This document shows positions 54,202-63,376 of a stretch of 64,000 bases of DNA, in pieces (the stretch's first letter is position 1; every line of letters starts with the position of its first letter). The DNA lies in NCBI RefSeq assembly GCF_014699135.1, contig NZ_JACOFT010000005.1:248288-312287 (forward strand), read 5' to 3'. The notes under the pieces were generated by a model. The model saw nothing but the letters and a program-made list of their open reading frames with translations. It had not been told where the DNA came from and ran no database searches. The position numbers and the translations under genes are program-made. This stretch comes from Cognatundibacterium aquatile (GTDB taxonomy: Bacteria; Pseudomonadota; Gammaproteobacteria; Burkholderiales; Burkholderiaceae_D).

Positions 54202-54275
54202 GGGGGAGTATGTGGCGATTTACGCTTATTCTCTTAATGAAATCAAGGGTGTTTACACATACTGGGGGGAGTATT
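54202..54275 (+). repeat. Dispersed paired-box element E
   Basis: Box 1 GGGGGAGTAT (54202-54211); box 2 dyad ATACT-GGGGGG-AGTAT (54259-54274), the same 16 bases as in element C. The GGAG to GGAG distance is 63 bp. It lies between divergent tex and the hydrolase gene, ending 16 bp before the hydrolase start codon. Confidence 0.78.
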
Positions 54276-54290
54276 TTAAAGGTGATTTTC

Positions 54291-55418
54291 ATGTTTTTTG
54301 GCCTTCCCAAACAGATCAGACATGTCGCTGTATGGCTGGCGGCGGGCTTGCTGATTTGGCTGATGTCGCTGTCGCTGGTGATACGCCCGGCGCTGGCGGC
54401 CCCTGCGCCTGCTGACAATATGCGTGTCATTTCTACGGCTGCCATCGCCGCAATCACACCGGCAGCTTCAGCTTCGGCAGCAACCGCCAGCAGCGCATTG
54501 CAGCCATCAACATTCACCTTTGCCGATGGCGGCGTTGCCCTGTTTTATCAATGGGATAAACAGCCGTGGCAGGCGGAAACCGCGGTGTCTGCGCCGACGA
54601 GCTCCGTGGCAGCACCCGTGAATCTGATCTTCGTTGTCGCCGGTGCAGGTTGCGGTAGCATGGGACGATACTTGCCGCAGTATTTCACCGGATTGGAAGG
54701 TGAATCAGGGGCGACCCGCATCAGCGTTTTGCAGAAGCGCCATATCAGCGATCAGGCCAGCGGCGACGAATGCAGTGAGGCATTTATCCGCGCTGATCAT
54801 CTGAGCCAATGGCAGGCCGATCAGCGGGCATTCATACAAGCGCAGTTACGCCAATTCAAACAACAAGGCATGCAGCCACGGCGCGTGATTTTGTTGGGCA
54901 TTTCTGAAGGTGCAGAGCTGGTACCGCTGTTGGTGCCGATGTTGGCGCGCGATCTGCCGCACATCACGCATCTGGCCTTGCTGGCGAATGCGGGAAATAG
55001 CGCGATTCCCACGTATCGCGCGCTCGCTGGCATCTATCCGCATATGCAGCAGGGCTGGAATGTTTTATCCAGCGCATTGGCAAGTTCCCCTGCTGACCCT
55101 GAGCAGTCACGTATTCACGGACGCAGCTGGCGCTACTGGTCGGAAATCGCTGGTGTTGATCAGACGCGTAATCTGATCGCCGCTCGCTTGCCGGTCTTCG
55201 TTGGTATCGGTGAGGCGGACACCTTAATTCCGCCGGGAGCGGCAAACGCCTTGAGAAAAGCGTTCGGCGATGCCGGGCGCAGCAATCTGCAACTGCGTGT
55301 TTATCCCGGTGCTGATCACGGCTTGCGTGGTGAGCATAAAAATTATCTGCCAGATTTTATGTGGCAACTGGATCAGTGGTTGCTGGATGAAGAGAATCCG
55401 AAGCCCAGCTTCCGGTGA
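54291..55418 (+). CDS. Secreted alpha/beta-hydrolase
   Basis: A 375-aa exported protein: hydrophobic N-terminus (VAVWLAAGLLIWLMSLSLVI) followed by an Ala/Pro-rich linker, then an alpha/beta-hydrolase domain. The nucleophile is the Ser of GISEGAEL, the acid is probably the Asp in GEADTLIPPG, and the His is in GADHGLRG. An oxyanion-type GAGCGSMG precedes. Start 54291 is preferred (AAAGGTG upstream); a longer frame begins inside repeat element E. Substrate unknown. Single gene. Confidence 0.75.
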   Translation: MFFGLPKQIRHVAVWLAAGLLIWLMSLSLVIRPALAAPAPADNMRVISTAAIAAITPAASASAATASSALQPSTFTFADGGVALFYQWDKQPWQAETAVSAPTSSVAAPVNLIFVVAGAGCGSMGRYLPQYFTGLEGESGATRISVLQKRHISDQASGDECSEAFIRADHLSQWQADQRAFIQAQLRQFKQQGMQPRRVILLGISEGAELVPLLVPMLARDLPHITHLALLANAGNSAIPTYRALAGIYPHMQQGWNVLSSALASSPADPEQSRIHGRSWRYWSEIAGVDQTRNLIAARLPVFVGIGEADTLIPPGAANALRKAFGDAGRSNLQLRVYPGADHGLRGEHKNYLPDFMWQLDQWLLDEENPKPSFR

Positions 55419-55508: not shown

Positions 55509-55537
55509 ATTACAAAAACAAACGCGCTCTTTATAAT
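55509..55537 (+). promoter_or_regulatory. Putative promoter of the LpoB cluster
   Basis: TATAAT at 55532-55537 with ATTACA at 55509-55514, 17-bp spacer (4/6 match to TTGACA). It is about 145 bp before the first gene of the cluster, leaving a long leader. Confidence 0.5.
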
Positions 55538-55681: not shown

Positions 55682-57175
55682 ATGCGCCTCTCTTCCTTCT
55701 CGCTCACACCTCTGGTTGCTGCTCTGGTTCTCACTGGTTGCGTTACAACGCAAACCCACGACAGCAAAGTCTCTAACTCACTGGCAGTTGTTAAAACCGG
55801 GCAGATCGAGGATGCGATCCGTCAGGTGGAAGAGCAGACTAAAGGTGCTAATCAGAATGATTTATTGCTGAATCTGGAAAAAGGCGAACTGATGCGTATC
55901 GGTAAGCGTTATCAGGACAGCTTGAATGCGCTGACGATTGCCGACACCAAGGTGAAAGAGTGGGAAGAAAACGCTAAAAGTAATCCGCAGAAATTGATGG
56001 GCCAGATCGGCGCCACGATCATGGGCGACGCCAGCCGCGATTACGAAGGACAGGATTACGAAAAAGTGATGCTGACTGTACGGATGGCGATGGATCGTAT
56101 CAATCTGGGTGATCTTGATACTGCCCGCGTCGATATCAAACGCACGCATGAGCGTGAAGCGGTGATTGCTGAATTCCGTTCCAAAGAAACAGAGTCCGCC
56201 GAAAAGGAAGCGAAAGAAAAAGGTGTAACAACCAGTAACAAGGAAATTAACGGTTATCCGGTTGAAACCCTGAATGACCCTGAAGTGCTGAAACTGAAGA
56301 ACGGTTATCAGAATGCACTGAGTCATTACCTCGCAGGTTTTGTATACGAAGCCCTGAATGAACCAGGTCTGGCGGCACCAGGCTATCGCAAGGCGATAGA
56401 ATTGCGCCCGGATTTGCCGGTGCTGGAAGATGGCTTGAAGGGCCTTGATCAACGCACCAGCTTCCGCCGCAAAAAAGGCGTGACGGATGTCCTGTTCGTG
56501 GTCGAAACCGGTAATGCGCCAGCCCGTCAGTCACAGAAATTTGCGTTGCCTTTGCCAACCTCACGCGGTCTTGTTACTGTATCGCTGACTTTCCCTGTGA
56601 TCCAGCCGGATAAAGAAGCGGCGGTGATCCGTTCGGTGAATATCGCGAATCAATCTTTGCCAACGGCATTGATCACTGATTTCAACGTCATGGCGCGTCG
56701 TGCATTGAAAGATGAAATGCCTGGTATTTACACCCGCGCTGCGATCCGCGCGATTACCAAAGGTGTGGTGCAGGATCAGGTCAATAAAAACTTCGGCGCA
56801 CTCGCTGGTCTGGCTGCTAATATTGCCGTGGTAGCGACTGAAGGCCCGGCAGATGATCGTATGTGGCGTAGTCTGCCAGAGCGCGTCTTTATTGCTCGTG
56901 CGTTTTTACCACCGGGCGAATATGATGTGAATTTTTCGGGTCGTCCTGGCGAAAGCACCAAGCTGAGTATTGATGGTCGTTACATGGTGGTGCCAGTGCG
57001 TTTGTATCCGAACAAAACTTATGTCGGTGATCTGGCAAAATTCGGTAGCGTGACACCAGCGGCGCAAATCGCAGCGGAAACGCCAGCGGTAAAAGCCGCA
57101 CCGACGAAGCCAGCGAACAGAAAAGCAGCGCAAAAGCAGGTGAAACCAGCTGCTGCAACTGCAGGTGCTAACTAA
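55682..57175 (+). CDS. COG3014-type lipoprotein with TPR-like repeats
   Basis: A 497-aa lipoprotein with lipobox VLTGC (Cys20). The first half is helical and TPR-like (SLNALTIADTKVKEW, LSHYLAGFVYEALNEPGLAAPGYRKAIELRP in part); the second half is beta-rich (VTVSLTFPVIQPD, VFIARAFLPPGEYDVNF), and it ends in an Ala/Lys-rich tail. I recognise it as a COG3014-type protein; its function is unknown. It leads a cluster with YcfL-, LpoB- and CsgG-like proteins (gaps 45-70 bp), suggesting a role at the outer membrane/peptidoglycan boundary. Confidence 0.75.
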   Translation: MRLSSFSLTPLVAALVLTGCVTTQTHDSKVSNSLAVVKTGQIEDAIRQVEEQTKGANQNDLLLNLEKGELMRIGKRYQDSLNALTIADTKVKEWEENAKSNPQKLMGQIGATIMGDASRDYEGQDYEKVMLTVRMAMDRINLGDLDTARVDIKRTHEREAVIAEFRSKETESAEKEAKEKGVTTSNKEINGYPVETLNDPEVLKLKNGYQNALSHYLAGFVYEALNEPGLAAPGYRKAIELRPDLPVLEDGLKGLDQRTSFRRKKGVTDVLFVVETGNAPARQSQKFALPLPTSRGLVTVSLTFPVIQPDKEAAVIRSVNIANQSLPTALITDFNVMARRALKDEMPGIYTRAAIRAITKGVVQDQVNKNFGALAGLAANIAVVATEGPADDRMWRSLPERVFIARAFLPPGEYDVNFSGRPGESTKLSIDGRYMVVPVRLYPNKTYVGDLAKFGSVTPAAQIAAETPAVKAAPTKPANRKAAQKQVKPAAATAGAN

Positions 57176-57245
57176 GTAAAACTGGCAAGACGACAGAAAC
57201 CAGTCGATTTAATTGATGTACAAAGTTACTAAGGAAAAATCATCC

Positions 57246-57641
57246 ATGATGTCTAAAAAAATTGCCGTTTGTGCGGCTGTCATCGCAGCCTGCTTTGCTG
57301 CACCGGTCATGGCCGAAGATGTGCCAAATGCAGTTTCTCCTGGCATTGCTGCGAAATTAATGGTGCGCGGCACGCTCGAAGGTGTGCAGGTCACTGATCT
57401 GCGCGGTCAGCGTCGCAACGACGTGCTGGTTGTGCAGGCCGAAATGTATAACACTACAGCCAAAGATGTGCGCGTGTATTACCGTTTCCGCTGGACAGAT
57501 GCGGCCGGTATGCAGGTTGGCGACGGCGAAGTCTGGAAACCATTGATGATACTGGGTAAGCAAAGCCAGCTCGTCAAAGGCACAGCCTATGGCCCGCAAG
57601 CGACAGATTTCAAAATCGAAATGAGCGCTGAGCCACGTTAA
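57246..57641 (+). CDS. ycfL: YcfL-family protein (DUF1425)
   Basis: A 131-aa exported protein with a signal peptide (SKKIAVCAAVIAACFAAPVMA). The mature part has the DUF1425 core: VTDLRGQRRNDVLVVQAE, VYYRFRWTDAAGMQV and EVWKPLMILG. Start 57246 is chosen for AAGGAA upstream. In E. coli ycfL is directly upstream of lpoB, as here. Role unknown; perhaps assists the LpoB lipoprotein. Confidence 0.85.
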   Translation: MMSKKIAVCAAVIAACFAAPVMAEDVPNAVSPGIAAKLMVRGTLEGVQVTDLRGQRRNDVLVVQAEMYNTTAKDVRVYYRFRWTDAAGMQVGDGEVWKPLMILGKQSQLVKGTAYGPQATDFKIEMSAEPR

Positions 57642-57686
57642 TCACAGATTTGTTTTAAAAAAATTGTACAGAACTACGGAGTTATT

Positions 57687-58301
57687 ATGAAACGCATTTC
57701 CTCTTTATCGACTACTTTGTGCCTGATGATTCTGGCCGTGACTTCTCTGTCTGCTTGCCAGACAAAATTATCGCAGCCGACCGTCAGCCTCGCGCGTCAG
57801 GTCAATTATGGCGACAACAAAGCGGTAGAAACAGTGACGAATGAATTCGGTTCGACTGATCTGCAAATGATTGCAGAAAAAATGGTAGGTTCCTTGCTCG
57901 AAGATCCGGCACTGGCAAATCGCCCGACACTGACACTGGCCGGCGTGCGCAATAAAACCAGCGAATACATCGACACTAAATCGATCATGAACAGTATTCA
58001 AACTGCGTTGGTGAAAAGTAAAAAAGTAAAATTCACACGTAGCGCGGATGAAATGCAGCAAGGCGTGGATGAGTTGCAACGTCAAAATCAAAGTGGCTTG
58101 TACAAATCCCAGGGTAAAGCAAAAGTGGGCAACATGACGGCAGCGAAATATTCACTCGAAGGTGAAATCGTTTCTATCGTCAAACAAAATTCCACGACTA
58201 AAGATGTGTTCTACAAGATGACATTGAAACTGTATGACATCGAAGATGGTTCCATCGAATGGCAGGATGAAAAAGAAATCCGTAAAACATCGAAAAAATA
58301 A
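57687..58301 (+). CDS. lpoB: LpoB-type penicillin-binding-protein activator
   Basis: A 204-aa lipoprotein (lipobox LSAC, Cys24) with the LpoB/CsgG-like fold: ALANRPTLTLAGVRNKTSEYI, MNSIQTALVKSKKVKFTR and the closing DIEDGSIEWQDEKEIRK are characteristic. In E. coli LpoB stimulates PBP1b across the periplasm. No PBP gene is in the window. The order YcfL then LpoB is that of enterobacteria, here flanked by two more exported proteins. Confidence 0.88.
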   Translation: MKRISSLSTTLCLMILAVTSLSACQTKLSQPTVSLARQVNYGDNKAVETVTNEFGSTDLQMIAEKMVGSLLEDPALANRPTLTLAGVRNKTSEYIDTKSIMNSIQTALVKSKKVKFTRSADEMQQGVDELQRQNQSGLYKSQGKAKVGNMTAAKYSLEGEIVSIVKQNSTTKDVFYKMTLKLYDIEDGSIEWQDEKEIRKTSKK

Positions 58302-58354
58302 TCAGCCCTGATCAATCTTTAACCGGTTTTTAACCGGCTCCTGAAGGACGCAAG

Positions 58355-59179
58355 ATGTTGAATATGAAAAAAATTCTGGCAGGCGTTTTCTGCTCCGCAG
58401 CGGCATGCAGCGCGCTGGCAGCAGAACCGAAAATTGCCGTGACCGATCTGACTTACGAAGAAAAAGTCAGCGAGTATTTCCGTGTCGTTTCTGCCAGCAG
58501 CAAAAGCAGTGTCAAAGGTAGCTACAGCGAACGCGAAACCGATCGCAGCTATTCACAACGCGGCAAAATCGATGCCAAGAGCGAAAGCAATTACTACGAA
58601 GCGGAAGGTTTTTACACCTATATCGATCGTGGCGAATTAAAAACCTACACGGCTGATTTAAAAGGCGCGATGATCAAAGGCGGTGGTGTGCATCTGATTC
58701 AGGCGCGTCCGTATGTTGGTAAACCGATGGAAAAAATTTACGACATCATCGGTCGTATCAAACAAGGCATGTATCCCGGCGCGGATTATGTGTTGTTCGG
58801 CACAGTCAGCAATATCCAGTTCCGTCAGGAAAGCAATCAACTGCAATACGGGAATTCGATGACAGCCAGCCTGTCACTCGATCTGGTGGCCGATTTCAGC
58901 CTGATTAATACCAAAACCTATGAGGTCAAAGCGGCTTTCAGCGCGAGTGGTTCCGGTGTTGATACTAAGATCATCAGCCGTGCCGGTGATCGCGTTGTCT
59001 TCAATCGCGGCAAGGTCATGCAGGAAACGTCACGCAGTCTGGCAGATGCCGCCTATAACGAGCTGATGGTGCAGTTCGGTTTGCCACGCGGCGCGAACCG
59101 TCCGGCGAATGTCAATGGTCAGCCAGTGGTACCTGCAGTGCCAGTACAAAATACAGAACCAGTGACGGTGTATCGTTAA
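58355..59179 (+). CDS. CsgG-fold-like exported protein of the LpoB cluster
   Basis: A 274-aa protein with a signal peptide (KKILAGVFCSAAACSALA) and no lipobox. The segments PKIAVTDLTYEE, YPGADYVLFGTVSNIQF and LDLVADFSLINTKTYEVKAAFSASG resemble the CsgG/LpoB type fold. Between lies a polar Ser/Tyr/Lys-rich insert (SVKGSYSERETDRSYSQRG). Pro-rich C-terminus. ATG 58355 has GAAGGA at good distance. A small hairpin CCGGTT/AACCGG (58323-58337) lies before it. Function unknown, probably acts with LpoB. Confidence 0.65.
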   Translation: MLNMKKILAGVFCSAAACSALAAEPKIAVTDLTYEEKVSEYFRVVSASSKSSVKGSYSERETDRSYSQRGKIDAKSESNYYEAEGFYTYIDRGELKTYTADLKGAMIKGGGVHLIQARPYVGKPMEKIYDIIGRIKQGMYPGADYVLFGTVSNIQFRQESNQLQYGNSMTASLSLDLVADFSLINTKTYEVKAAFSASGSGVDTKIISRAGDRVVFNRGKVMQETSRSLADAAYNELMVQFGLPRGANRPANVNGQPVVPAVPVQNTEPVTVYR

Positions 59180-59204
59180 TCGGTCATCGCTGTTTTAGTA
59201 ACTG

Positions 59205-59232
59205 AAAAGCCAGCAGAAATGCTGGCTTTTTT
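59205..59232. terminator. Terminator of the LpoB cluster
   Basis: Stem AAAAGCCAGCA (59205-59215) and TGCTGGCTTTT (59220-59230) closed by a GAAA tetraloop, then TT. Confidence 0.92.
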
Positions 59233-59504: not shown

Positions 59505-59957
59505 ATGATGAAACGTAAACCGTTTGCACAGCTGTTCTTCTTCGCTATTTTTGCGCTTGCCGCAAATGTTGGTAATGCCGCGAATGCCGCTGGGGCAGAT
59601 CGATATGTCCCTGTATGCGTTGATATGAAGGGCTATCAGGCAGAGGCTGAGTGCTTCAGTCATCAGCTTGATTTGAAAGAGGCTCAATTTAAAAAGTACT
59701 ATCTGGCAGCGCAGAAGCAGGATATAAAAATATACGGCGGCAACGCCGAGGAATTAGCCGAATCACAGCAGATGTGGGAACAGTATCTGCGAAAGCATTG
59801 CGACTATCTGTACAGCCGTGAGCAAGGTACTGCCCGGATACGCGATTCTGCCGAGTGCCGGTTGCGACTGTATGACGAGCGCATTGACGAAATATGGATT
59901 TCGTATTTAAGGTATTTTGGTTCTGCTGAGCCGGTTCTTCGCGATCCCCGGAAATAA
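59505..59957 (+). CDS. Secreted LprI-like (DUF1311) protein
   Basis: A 150-aa exported protein with a signal peptide (RKPFAQLFFFAIFALAANVGNAA). The mature part has four Cys and the DUF1311 pattern: an early Cys pair (VCVDMKGYQAEAECF), AESQQMWEQYLRKHCDYLY and a late SAECRLRLYDERIDEIW. Some relatives inhibit lysozyme; here this is inference from the family. Starts at ATG 59505 or 59508 after AGGTGA. No partner gene. Confidence 0.65.
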   Translation: MMKRKPFAQLFFFAIFALAANVGNAANAAGADRYVPVCVDMKGYQAEAECFSHQLDLKEAQFKKYYLAAQKQDIKIYGGNAEELAESQQMWEQYLRKHCDYLYSREQGTARIRDSAECRLRLYDERIDEIWISYLRYFGSAEPVLRDPRK

Positions 59958-60307: not shown

Positions 60308-60721
60308 TCAGCGATAAATATCGGGCCGATGAATTTCCATAAAATTTTCTGGTGTTGCCGGTGAGCGGAAACCAAATTTTTCATACAGGCCGCGTGCCGA
60401 GCTACTGACCAGTATGAAGCGGCGTATGTTTTGCAGATCAGGATGATCTTGTATCACTTCCAGCAGATGGCGGCTATGACCTTGGCCACGGAAATCCGGC
60501 AAGACAAACACATCCATCAGATAGGCGAATGTGGCATGGTCTGTGACTACCCTGGCAAACGCGATTTGTTTGCCATCAATAAATCCGCCAAAGCACAGGG
60601 AATGCTCAATTGAACGTTGTACCGTTTCCAGCGGAATCCCTTGCGCCCACGGTGAGGTCGTGGATAAAAAATCGTGTATCAGCGCAATGTCGAGCGCGGT
60701 TTTATCTGTCGTAATGTGCAT
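60308..60721 (-). CDS. GNAT-family N-acetyltransferase
   Basis: A 137-aa acetyltransferase of the compact GNAT type. The acetyl-CoA motif A is VFVLPDFRGQGHSRHLLE and the C-terminal ARGLYEKFGFRSP is the usual last helix/strand. Start at 60721 (MHITTDKTALD); the frame runs 14 codons further up without support. It is 16 bp downstream of prmC, so probably co-transcribed. Substrate unknown. Confidence 0.85.
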   Translation of the reverse strand: MHITTDKTALDIALIHDFLSTTSPWAQGIPLETVQRSIEHSLCFGGFIDGKQIAFARVVTDHATFAYLMDVFVLPDFRGQGHSRHLLEVIQDHPDLQNIRRFILVSSSARGLYEKFGFRSPATPENFMEIHRPDIYR

Positions 60722-60737
60722 AAAAATTCTTTTCCGA

Positions 60738-61565
60738 TCAGCTGCGTTGTCCGCCTGTAACACGTTCTATACCAGCGAGGTCGCGCCAGCTTTGTACTTG
60801 CGTGTAGCCCGCGCCGTTTAACAAAGCGCGCACATCCTCGGCCTGATGGTAACCATGTTCCATCAGCAGCCAGCCTTGTGGCGCAAGATGCATATGCGCG
60901 CCGCTGACGATGTGCCGGTAAGCGCTGAGGCCGTCTGCGTGATCGGTGAGGGCATTAATGGGTTCAAAGCGCAGATCGCCCTGGCTCAGATGTGGGTCAT
61001 CTTTGACGATGTAGGGCGGGTTGCTGACGATGGTCTGAAATACCTTGCCCGTAAGCGCACTGTACCAGTCGCTGTGCAGCAATTGCAGACGATCAGGCGG
61101 CAGCAAACGCGCGGCATTTTTGTTTGCTACCGCAAGTGCCTCAGTGCTGATATCGACCGCGCAGACATCCAGATCCTGGCGTTCGTGGGCAATCGCAATC
61201 GCAATCGCACCGGAACCTGTGCCGAGATCGAGTAGGCTGGAGTTTTGCGGTGCGAATTGCAAACCGAGTTCCACCAGCAATTCTGTATCGGGTCGTGGGA
61301 TCAATACTGCTGGTGAGGTATAAAAGGGCAGACCGAAAAACTCACGTTCACCGGTCAGGTACGCGATGGGCTCGCCAGCTAAACGACGTTGCTGCAATTC
61401 GACGAACTGAGACATTTGCTGCGCGCTGAGCTGATAGTCCGAGCGGGTAATCAGTTGTATGCGGCTAAAGCCAGTCACATGCATGAGCAACATGCGTGTT
61501 TCCAGCTTGTCCAGCGGCGACAAGCGCTCATGATCGGCAATGCTGAGCGGTTGTCCTGCTGTCAT
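60738..61565 (-). CDS. prmC: Release-factor glutamine methyltransferase
   Basis: Methylates the Gln of the GGQ motif in release factors, 275 aa. AdoMet motif LLDLGTGSGAIAIA (about 111-124) and catalytic NPPY (182-185). The target RF1 gene prfA is close by in the same direction, but dsbB lies between them. The start overlaps the dsbB stop by 1 bp (TGATG). Confidence 0.96.
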   Translation of the reverse strand: MTAGQPLSIADHERLSPLDKLETRMLLMHVTGFSRIQLITRSDYQLSAQQMSQFVELQQRRLAGEPIAYLTGEREFFGLPFYTSPAVLIPRPDTELLVELGLQFAPQNSSLLDLGTGSGAIAIAIAHERQDLDVCAVDISTEALAVANKNAARLLPPDRLQLLHSDWYSALTGKVFQTIVSNPPYIVKDDPHLSQGDLRFEPINALTDHADGLSAYRHIVSGAHMHLAPQGWLLMEHGYHQAEDVRALLNGAGYTQVQSWRDLAGIERVTGGQRS

Positions 61566-62074
61566 CAGTGACGCTTTCCGAACATGCCGGTTTTTTGTTT
61601 TTGAAAAAACAGTACGATCAGCGTGAGACTGAAAATAACAAACCAGATCATGGCCCAGGTCGGAATCGCCAGACCGAAGATCGGTGGATACGGTGTTTCA
61701 CACAAACCGTCTGCACGGAACAGGATAGGAAACCATTCCGACAAGAAGATTTTGTTGAGCCCGGTTTCCAGCGGATCGATACCGCAGGAAAGCGTAGGAT
61801 TCGACAAGACATACAGATGTTTGCCTGCGATGCCGATGCCGCCGAATGCTGATAAACCTGCGAGACCTATGCCGTAACGGCGCGCATCGGCAGGAAGAAA
61901 CGCAGCGATCAGGCTGAACAGCGCGATGGCAAGGAATGCGTAACGCTGGAAGACGCATAAGGGACAAGGCAGCATCAGCTCAACGATTTGCAGATAGAGG
62001 GCAACCGCTATCAGTAGCAGGCAGGTGGCAGAGATGCCGAGTAAGACGAATTTAGAGGAACGCATGTAGGTCAT
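61565..62074 (-). CDS. dsbB: Disulphide-bond formation protein DsbB
   Basis: A 169-aa quinone-coupled membrane oxidase that re-oxidises DsbA. Four helices; redox pairs are Cys37/Cys40 in PCPLC and Cys97/Cys125 in the second periplasmic loop. The ATG at 62074 or the one three codons later may be used. Its place between prfA and prmC is not the common arrangement in these operons. Confidence 0.95.
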   Translation of the reverse strand: MTYMRSSKFVLLGISATCLLLIAVALYLQIVELMLPCPLCVFQRYAFLAIALFSLIAAFLPADARRYGIGLAGLSAFGGIGIAGKHLYVLSNPTLSCGIDPLETGLNKIFLSEWFPILFRADGLCETPYPPIFGLAIPTWAMIWFVIFSLTLIVLFFQKQKTGMFGKRH

Positions 62075-62191
62075 TCGTAAAATGAAAGCGGATGCCAGCT
62101 TACACGCTATTTAAAGCCTCATGTTTATAAGAAACTAAATAGTATGGAATGCTGGTGTTGCTGGCGCTGTTGGTACCGTGACTTGGATAGT

Positions 62192-63271
62192 TTAATCGTC
62201 TCCAAGTTCCGCAAGGAGTTCAGCCTGGTGTTCTGCAATCAGGGCATTGCTCAGTTCGGTCAGATCGCCATCCATAATGAAATCGAGTTTATACAAGGTC
62301 AGATTGATGCGGTGATCAGTCATGCGGCCTTGCGGATAATTGTAAGTGCGTATGCGCTCACTGCGGTCGCCGGAACCGATCAGGCTCTTACGGGTTGCTG
62401 CCTCTTTCGCCTGTTTCTCTCTTAACTGACCATCCATGATCCTGGTGGCCAGCACCCGCATCGCCTGCGCCTTATTCTGATGTTGGCTGCGGCCATCCTG
62501 ACATTCGACCACGATACCGGTAGGAATATGCGTCAGGCGCACAGCAGAATCAGTTTTATTAATGTGCTGCCCGCCGGCACCGCTGGCGCGGAAAGTGTCG
62601 ATACGCAGATCGGCATTGTTGATGATCACGTCGGCGAGCTCATCCGCTTCAGGCATCACGGCGACGGTACAGGCGGAAGTATGGATACGGCCTTGCGTTT
62701 CTGTCGCCGGAACGCGTTGCACTCGATGTCCGCCGGATTCAAATTTCAGCTTGGAATACGCACCCAGACCGGCGATACGCACGATCACTTCTTTGTAGCC
62801 GCCAAGCTCAGAAGGCGACTCCGACATCATCTCTACTTGCCAGCGGTTACGTTCAGCGAAACGGGTGTACATGCGCAATAAATCACCGGCAAACAAGGCA
62901 GCTTCGTCACCGCCGGTGCCGGCGCGGATTTCCAACAAGATGTTACGTTCATCGTTGGGGTCTTTCGGCAGCAGCATTTTTTGCAGATCGGCTTCCAACG
63001 TTTGCATTTTTTCTTTTGCGGCTTCTATCTCATCTTGCGCAAATGCTTTCATGTCGGGATCGTTGAGCATTTCCTGTGCTTCGCCCAGATCGGCTTGTGC
63101 CTGCTGATAGTTTTTGTAGAGAGCGACGAGGGGGTCTAATTCCGCATGCTCACGGTTGAGTTTGCGGTAATTGTCCATGTCATTGGTGGCGCCTTCCTGC
63201 ATCAGCAGGTGACCAACTTCGTCGAGACGTTCAGCCAGCTGATCCAGCTTGGAGAGCATTGATGGTTTCAT
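62192..63271 (-). CDS. prfA: Peptide chain release factor 1
   Basis: Terminates translation at UAG and UAA. 359 aa from [10 protein letters not shown] (63271); the frame extends 28 codons further with no homology. The stop-codon reading PxT motif is Pro188-Ala189-Thr190, and GGQ is at 233-235 in [24 protein letters not shown] is the family signature. Follows hemA by 105 bp. Confidence 0.98.
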
Positions 63272-63376
63272 ACGGGAAGAGTAGTAGGTGAATCCGGAGG
63301 GAACTGCTTCAGGCTTGAAAACAGTCACCGAGAAGATGACGCAGAGAGTCTGCATCAGAAAGAAAAGCAGAATCCG

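What the first reader, a model, noticed from the sequence alone, without database searches (positions are those of the whole stretch)
55682..59179. Four-gene LpoB cluster in a betaproteobacterium
A COG3014-like lipoprotein, YcfL, LpoB and a CsgG-like exported protein follow in one transcript with a good promoter and a GAAA-loop terminator. LpoB is best known from gammaproteobacteria, and the two flanking proteins have no assigned role. They could form an outer-membrane complex that controls PBP activity or a secretion-like assembly.
Basis: partly seen in the sequence, partly recalled or inferred. Interest (0 to 1): 0.5.

Follow-up and report, generated by a model that had tools for sequence, protein, structure and literature searches.

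The report
LpoB operon without its PBP1b partner
A conserved set of envelope genes, one of them annotated as an activator of the cell-wall enzyme PBP1b, is found in bacteria in which no PBP1b was found, and it travels with a secreted hydrolase, so it probably does a different job at the outer membrane.

Summary
The four genes are real and strongly conserved as a block. Of 80 loci found with the CsgG-like protein, 76 have COG3014-like, YcfL, LpoB and CsgG-like genes in that order on one strand; the other 4 are cut by contig ends. Across 274 genomes of the class LpoB follows the COG3014-like gene (45 of 54 against 2 of 220) far more closely than PBP1b (40 of 54 against 123 of 220). Its tether is shorter than in E. 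coli LpoB. In other lineages YcfL or the CsgG-like protein is fused to a caspase-like domain. Best reading: an accessory scaffold that holds or controls an envelope hydrolase. Its three-gene core is known from Campylobacter.

The parts
   Evidence: PF12146 E 3.2e-8, over its cut-off; relatives in 38 of 80 D loci, all on the block's strand; triad invariant in 30 of 30 aligned; genus co-occurrence 15/15 against 1/21
55509..55537 (+). possible sigma-70 promoter ATTACA-17-TATAAT
   Evidence: not above the chance number of matches
55682..57175 (+). COG3014-like (recalled label) TPR lipoprotein, 497 aa: TPR 26-260, beta domain, 53-residue helix 334-386, second beta domain
   Evidence: ORF; model pLDDT 84; TPR matches only; lipobox LTGC20 by eye
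57246..57641 (+). YcfL/DUF1425 protein, 131 aa, signal peptide without lipobox (by eye)
   Evidence: PF07233 E 5e-20; profile A7 finds PDB 3o0l (1.1e-18) and 4gio (1.7e-9)
57687..58301 (+). LpoB-family lipoprotein, 204 aa, lipid cysteine C24
   Evidence: PF13036 5.6e-43, TIGR02722 128.2 bits over its cut-off; tether measured
58355..59179 (+). exported CsgG/FlgT/PelC-fold protein, 274 aa, with an inserted polar beta hairpin (residues 43-83)
   Evidence: model pLDDT 74, fold matches, weak homology to LpoB
59204..59231 (+). intrinsic terminator, 12-bp stem, GAAA loop
   Evidence: z -4.24

Best explanation
This is an accessory envelope lipoprotein module, not a PBP1b activator. SHOWN (by genomics): the COG3014-like TPR lipoprotein, YcfL, LpoB and a CsgG/FlgT-fold protein are a conserved unit; in this genus they come and go together with a secreted serine hydrolase; no PBP1b was found in the LpoB-positive genomes of this order that were searched. 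INFERRED: the two lipoproteins sit on the inner face of the outer membrane. LpoB and the CsgG-fold protein, both of the fold that builds rings in CsgG, PelC and FlgT, form the body; the TPR lipoprotein and YcfL bind a client. The client is an envelope hydrolase: the alpha/beta hydrolase here, a caspase-like domain fused to YcfL or to the CsgG-fold protein in other lineages. The scaffold would hold that enzyme in place and switch or confine its activity. On this reading enterobacterial LpoB, with its long tether and UB2H dock, is a derived member recruited to PBP1b.
For: Exact ABCD order in 76 of 80 D loci, the other 4 contig-truncated. LpoB x COG3014-like in 274 class genomes 45/9/2/218, Fisher 5.8e-40; LpoB x PBP1b 40/14/123/97, p 0.02 (inputs). 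No PBP1b in 25 LpoB-positive genomes of the order; a match in 3 of 50 D-carrying genomes, one of them partial. Lipid cysteine to first helix: E. coli 64 residues, window 39, beta/other set median 37 (n 92, window included), gamma set median 28 (n 31), about 20 of them a conserved motif in the window. Hydrolase: 38 of 80 D loci, all on the block's strand; in 20 it directly follows D with gaps of -3 to 43 bp; in the genus 15/15 against 1/21, p 2.9e-9, the one exception being a block cut by a contig end; invariant triad. Caspase-like domain: 9 loci on YcfL, 1 on D; Pfam-confirmed in the 3 scanned. Strong purifying selection on A-D against the nearest species, dN/dS 0-0.04. In print: HP0018, a TPR lipoprotein and Cj0089 homologue, co-precipitates the peptidoglycan hydrolases AmiA and MltD (PMC11394524, passages).
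Against: No interaction, localisation or activity has been measured here. In C. jejuni the TPR lipoprotein Cj0089 fractionated with the inner membrane and its mutant had no adherence defect, while Cj0091 was mainly outer-membrane (PMC3100323, abstract and section 9); that speaks against both lipoproteins lying on one membrane. A hydrolase client is not universal: of 80 D loci 38 have the hydrolase (one, L072, only 3.9 kb away and cut), 10 a caspase-like domain, 32 neither within the DNA held, and none of the 40 gamma loci has the hydrolase. Here the hydrolase lies before the putative promoter, so it may be a separate transcript. LpoB and PBP1b are weakly positively associated in the class (p 0.02), and E. 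coli LpoB does activate PBP1b (literature). The tests are not corrected for phylogeny. D's mean pLDDT is 74 and its extra hairpin is poorly predicted.
Confidence: 0.4

Rival explanations
1. LpoB here still activates peptidoglycan synthesis, through one of the two PBP1A enzymes, with the COG3014-like protein, YcfL and D as co-regulators.
For: LpoB passes the TIGR02722 equivalog cut-off; the host has two PBP1A; Helicobacter authors also suggest a peptidoglycan role for their LpoB homologue (PMC11394524, passages).
Against: No UB2H dock in the host PBPs; tether shorter than in E. coli; LpoB occurs in only 15 of 36 genomes of the genus, odd for a regulator of a core synthase.
Confidence: 0.2
2. 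The CsgG-like protein is an outer-membrane export channel and the lipoproteins are its accessory factors; the hydrolase or caspase-like protein is its cargo or processing enzyme.
For: Best Foldseek match is CsgG, E 1.6e-7; two gamma loci carry a true PF03783 CsgG protein with a FlgT_C part beside the block (L136, L160).
Against: No PF03783 match by sequence; hairpin tips are polar with no clear membrane-spanning alternation (by eye); VIA puts CT253 (Z 12.8), FlgT (12.7) and PelC (11.8) level with or above CsgG (11.8).
Confidence: 0.12
3. It is part of an outer-membrane ring around a motor, like the FlgO/FlgP/FlgT rings of sodium-driven flagella.
For: D resembles FlgT (Z 12.7); in gammaproteobacteria LPP20-related lipoproteins, the fold and family linked to FlgP, neighbour LpoB in 18 of 40 loci; LpoB is enriched in FlgI-positive genomes, p 0.002.
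Against: 15 of 54 LpoB-positive genomes have no FlgI match. The largest neighbour family in the beta loci is a hydrolase; the smaller neighbour families were not annotated.
Confidence: 0.12
4. It is a surface adhesin/colonisation complex, as proposed for the C. jejuni cj0089-cj0091 operon.
For: Same three-gene core; the cj0091 mutant adheres 4.3-fold less (PMC3100323, abstract and passages).
Against: Many named relatives are environmental isolates or MAGs (record titles), so a host-cell phenotype may be indirect; surface exposure of LpoB-family proteins was not shown here.
Confidence: 0.1

Closest known systems
Campylobacter jejuni cj0089-cj0090-cj0091 lipoprotein operon (Oakland 2011, PMC3100323: abstract, passages and section 9 read)
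   Same: TPR lipoprotein, small lipoprotein, then the orthologue of the LpoB homologue HP1457, co-transcribed. The YcfL profile finds PDB 4gio, recalled as Cj0090.
   Different: No CsgG-like fourth gene, hydrolase or caspase fusion is mentioned in what I read; Cj0089 fractionates with the inner membrane. I did not compare the sequences of Cj0089 and Cj0091 directly.
E. coli ycfL-lpoB (hinT-ycfL-lpoB-thiK-nagZ, NC_000913)
   Same: YcfL next to LpoB; same families.
   Different: No COG3014-like gene beside it; 64 against 39 residues from lipid cysteine to first helix; E. coli has PBP1b (control).
CsgG / PelC / FlgT outer-membrane ring proteins
   Same: Fold of D (CsgG Foldseek E 1.6e-7; FlgT Z 12.7, PelC Z 11.8).
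   Different: D has no PF03783 match, probably no lipid anchor, and a polar hairpin insertion.
Helicobacter HP0018 / HP1457 (PMC11394524, passages)
   Same: TPR lipoprotein whose homologue lies in an operon with an LpoB homologue in many enterohepatic species; linked to envelope hydrolases AmiA and MltD.
   Different: hp0018 stands alone in H. pylori; no CsgG-like or hydrolase gene in the passages read.

Membership tests
LpoB, activator of PBP1b | sequence family PF13036 / TIGR02722 | tested here: met
   146.8 and 128.2 bits, both over cut-off
LpoB, activator of PBP1b | outer-membrane lipoprotein signal (lipobox, no Asp at +2) | tested here: met
   LSAC24-Q in the translation, by eye
LpoB, activator of PBP1b | long disordered tether (54 aa in E. 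coli, PMC9593243 passage) that lets the domain reach PBP1b | tested here: not met
   39 residues from Cys to first helix against 64 in E. coli, about 20 of them a conserved motif; 20 of 144 proteins had no recognised lipobox and were left out of the medians
LpoB, activator of PBP1b | PBP1b with UB2H docking domain in the same genome | tested here: not met
   class A PBPs are PBP1A, PBP1A, PBP1C; UB2H hit is Mfd
LpoB, activator of PBP1b | stimulates glycosyltransferase/transpeptidase activity | not testable with these tools
   -
CsgG secretion channel | PF03783 sequence family | tested here: not met
   no hit at E <= 1
CsgG secretion channel | CsgG-type fold | tested here: met
   Foldseek E 1.6e-7; Z 11.8, rmsd 3.9, 159 aligned with 6lqh
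CsgG secretion channel | two membrane-spanning hairpins forming a barrel | tested here: inconclusive
   hairpins present in the model but polar (by eye) and partly low confidence
TPR-DUF1425-LpoB lipoprotein operon (cj0089-91 type) | gene order TPR lipoprotein, DUF1425 protein, LpoB family | tested here: met
   genes together in 22 of the 24 best other LpoB loci of the order
TPR-DUF1425-LpoB lipoprotein operon (cj0089-91 type) | direct sequence homology to Cj0089, Cj0090 and Cj0091 | tested here: inconclusive
   YcfL profile hits 4gio at 1.7e-9 (identity as Cj0090 recalled); the other two were not compared

The most novel reading that the evidence does not exclude
A widespread envelope scaffold of LpoB, COG3014-like TPR lipoprotein, YcfL and a CsgG/FlgT-fold protein holds interchangeable enzymes (a serine hydrolase, or a caspase-like protease that has been fused independently to two different scaffold subunits), and the textbook PBP1b activator LpoB is a late recruit from this scaffold.
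Probability: 0.3. Interest if true: 0.75.

Novelty: new variant of a known kind. Interest (0 to 1): 0.52.

Why it matters
Typas et al. 2010 (PMC3060616, passages) state that LpoB and UB2H are restricted to enterobacteria and evolved together, using stringent cut-offs (100 bits for LpoB, 35% identity for UB2H). With profiles the LpoB family reaches further: it occurs in genomes of this order in which no PBP1b was found, tied to a COG3014-like lipoprotein. The window protein passes the curated 'PBP activator LpoB' cut-off, so that name is probably misleading here. It opens the ancestral role of LpoB to test, and it gives experimenters named candidate partners: a secreted hydrolase and caspase-like domains with signal peptides.

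Tried and rejected
UB2H in the host: the single PF14814 hit looked like support for LpoB docking but lies in Mfd. Caspase in the host: no PF00656 match. Defence system: no PADLOC hit for the five window proteins; the two caspase fusions scanned hit only a caspase model. PDB sequence search with the D profile: two weak hits to DUF305 proteins, E 0.4; with the TPR-lipoprotein profile: TPR-region hits, mostly designed proteins. Fold search of the TPR lipoprotein: matches rest on its TPR part; its beta domains and long helix were not tested alone. LpoB is not among the 50 rows shown for D, which proves nothing. Papers: 'COG3014' in 0 papers; LpoB with caspase 6 papers and LpoB with YcfL 5 papers, judged from the listings only, none with a title about this. 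A UB2H-facing surface comparison of LpoB was dropped: the passages read give no list of LpoB residues.

Weak points kept in view: hydrolase and caspase-like domain never share a locus (0 of 80; hypergeometric 0.0009 with 38 and 10; one search had used 28 hydrolase loci and gave 0.0096), but phylogeny confounds this. Neighbour clustering found the hydrolase in 29 loci; a profile built from those and the window protein found it in 38 of 80 D loci plus L031 and L037. Some loci are the same genome under two ids (LpoB of L029 and L089, and of L031 and L110, is identical), so sets L026-L049 and L056-L135 overlap slightly. PBP_1b by E-value alone is unsafe: a PBP1A scored whole reaches 6e-117, so I relied on the curated cut-off and matched range. 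Two of the 16 genus hydrolase matches run over one stop codon (G498, G475). Of 40 gamma loci, L151, L152, L154 and L159 show no COG3014-like gene; the genomes of L151 and L159 have one on another contig. The exception G488 has the hydrolase followed by the first 273 residues of the COG3014-like gene up to the contig end.
Full report
OBSERVATION. Protein B is DUF1425/YcfL and protein C is LpoB, both above curated cut-offs. Protein A has no family in Pfam or NCBIfam beyond sub-threshold hits; I keep the recalled label 'COG3014-like'. Protein D has no family above threshold, only a faint LpoB match. A strong terminator follows D (z -4.24); promoter-like sites in the region are not above chance. 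Closest named organism: Undibacterium rivi, 99% identical over D.

CO-OCCURRENCE. In 150 genomes of the order, 42 have a PF13036 match at E <= 1e-3; 25 (window included) have one of 70 bits or more over nearly the full profile. I fetched the 24 others. In 22 of these 24, A, B and C homologues lie together; the two lowest-scoring, L048 and L049, lack the block. In 21 of the 22 the order is A-B-C; in L046 it is C-D-A-B. D was found in 8 of the 22 by blastp. From the other side, a scan of the genome collection with six D proteins gave 91 relatives, of which 80 were kept. 76 of 80 show A-B-C-D in order on one strand; the remaining four (L070, L083, L091, L113) are cut by contig ends. Record titles include Undibacterium, Herbaspirillum, Bordetella, Accumulibacter, Propionivibrio, Azonexus, Comamonas and Pandoraea, plus MAGs labelled Methylococcaceae and Magnetococcales.

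THE PBP1b TEST. The host genome has four transglycosylase-domain proteins. By NCBIfam two are PBP1A-family and one PBP1C, and Pfam shows no UB2H in them; the fourth has only the transglycosylase domain and I call it MtgA from size and domain. The one UB2H hit is in a 1154-aa frame that reads as Mfd (identified by eye). In the 150 genomes PBP_1b passes its cut-off in 2 (G143, G024), neither among the 25 LpoB-positive. Of 50 genomes behind D loci (50 of 80 were submitted; several are MAGs, so absence is less sure), 3 match at 1e-100: two full PBP1b, both Methylococcaceae MAGs (L108, L109), and one partial (L130). Across 274 genomes of the class, LpoB x COG3014-like is 45/9/2/218 (p 5.8e-40) and LpoB x PBP1b 40/14/123/97 (p 0.02). 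These are raw Fisher tests, not corrected for phylogeny. In 40 gamma LpoB loci (40 of the 53 other LpoB genomes), A lies adjacent or within a few kb in 36.

THE TETHER. E. coli LpoB has 64 residues between the lipid cysteine and the first helix; a paper gives an unstructured N-terminus of 54 residues that lets it reach PBP1b (PMC9593243, passage). The window protein has 39, of which about 20 are a conserved motif. In 92 beta/other and 31 gamma proteins the medians are 37 and 28; 20 proteins without a recognised lipobox were left out. This favours a domain that stays near its membrane (inference).

THE CsgG-LIKE PROTEIN. The D model (55-row alignment, pLDDT 74) has the CsgG/PelC/FlgT fold with an inserted polar beta hairpin at 43-83. 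CsgG, PelC and FlgT build outer-membrane rings (recalled; PelC dodecamer and LPHT ring in the titles). A paper on FlgP links ring formation in a related fold to a hairpin insertion, at a different place (PMC12222027, passages). D is distantly related to LpoB: its profile picks LpoB proteins at E down to 1e-10 in a small database, and hhalign gives E 1.8e-4 with probability 48%. The A model (pLDDT 84) is a TPR domain, a beta domain, a 53-residue helix and a second beta domain.

THE FIFTH GENE. Among neighbours of all loci the largest recurrent family is an alpha/beta hydrolase with a signal peptide. A profile of it finds 38 of the 80 D loci, 38 of 38 on the block's strand: 18 before A (Undibacterium, Noviherbaspirillum and relatives; L072 only 3.9 kb away), 20 directly after D with gaps of -3 to 43 bp, so in one operon there; none of the 40 gamma loci has it. 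The window copy is 54210-55418. Ser232 (GISEG), Asp337, His370 and Cys148/Cys188 are invariant in the 30 aligned. In 36 genomes of the genus LpoB is present in 15; the hydrolase is in 15 of 15 and in 1 of 21 without LpoB (p 2.9e-9). That one (G488) has hydrolase plus the first 273 residues of A up to the contig end, so its block is cut, not absent. In 6 genus loci fetched (6 of the 14 other LpoB-positive genomes) the order is hydrolase-A-B-C-D; tex is the next matched gene upstream in all 6, directly so in 5 and 3 kb away in L182. Against U. rivi, A-D have dN/dS 0-0.04 with YcfL and LpoB identical, while the hydrolase has 0.19 and a raised dS of 0.73, so it changes faster than its partners.

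CASPASE FUSIONS. In 9 loci (Accumulibacter, Propionivibrio, Azonexus and other Rhodocyclaceae by title) YcfL is the C-terminal part of a protein of about 460-490 aa with a signal peptide (by eye) and a caspase-like domain with His/Cys motifs; L076's frame starts further upstream (671 aa). In one Methylococcaceae MAG (L105) D carries a caspase-like domain instead. Pfam confirms PF00656 in the three scanned. The fusions tie a protease to two different members of the block.

GAMMAPROTEOBACTERIAL VERSIONS. There LpoB often precedes the COG3014-like gene, with LPP20-related lipoproteins as neighbours in 18 of 40 loci; all 7 proteins scanned match PF02169, 5 over the cut-off. Paper and memory link this fold to the flagellar ring protein FlgP. 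LpoB is only loosely linked to FlgI: 39 of 54 against 107 of 220, p 0.002, 15 LpoB genomes having no match. Two loci (L136, L160) have a true CsgG/FlgT_C protein just before the COG3014-like gene.

WHAT IS KNOWN. The three-gene core is the C. jejuni cj0089-cj0090-cj0091 operon; its LpoB homologue Cj0091 affects adherence, but the TPR lipoprotein Cj0089 fractionated with the inner membrane and its mutant adhered normally (PMC3100323, abstract, passages, section 9). The H. pylori TPR lipoprotein HP0018 affects vesiculation and shape and co-precipitates AmiA and MltD (PMC11394524, passages). I found no paper on the four- or five-gene form or on the fusions in the listings.

JUDGEMENT. Shown: a conserved, strongly constrained accessory module, decoupled from PBP1b in this order, linked to a serine hydrolase and, elsewhere, to caspase-like domains. 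Inferred: an envelope scaffold that positions or controls a hydrolase. Function is untested.

Noticed in passing
L001 (G000:C9:308743-308865): The Pfam UB2H model rings on Mfd, so UB2H surveys by this model alone overcount.
   Followed up: yes
L136-L175 (18 of 40 gamma loci): LPP20-related lipoproteins, sometimes two, flank the LpoB-COG3014-like pair; recalls the flagellar ring set FlgO/FlgP/FlgT.
   Followed up: partly
window 59505-59957 (+): LprI-like (PF07007, lysozyme inhibitor family) protein after the terminator; no match beside the block in the six genus loci L177-L182.
   Followed up: partly
G143:C42:24321-26483 and G024:C9:268210-270378: The only 2 of 150 genomes of the order over the PBP_1b cut-off; neither has a strong LpoB match.
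   Followed up: no
G489, G497, G500, G502, G504: These LpoB-positive genomes of the genus carry a second, 26-29% identical relative of the hydrolase elsewhere.
   Followed up: no
window 60308-63355 (-): GNAT, prmC and prfA have about twice the synonymous divergence of A-D against U. rivi (dS 0.50-0.60 against 0.19-0.27), perhaps local allele exchange.
   Followed up: no
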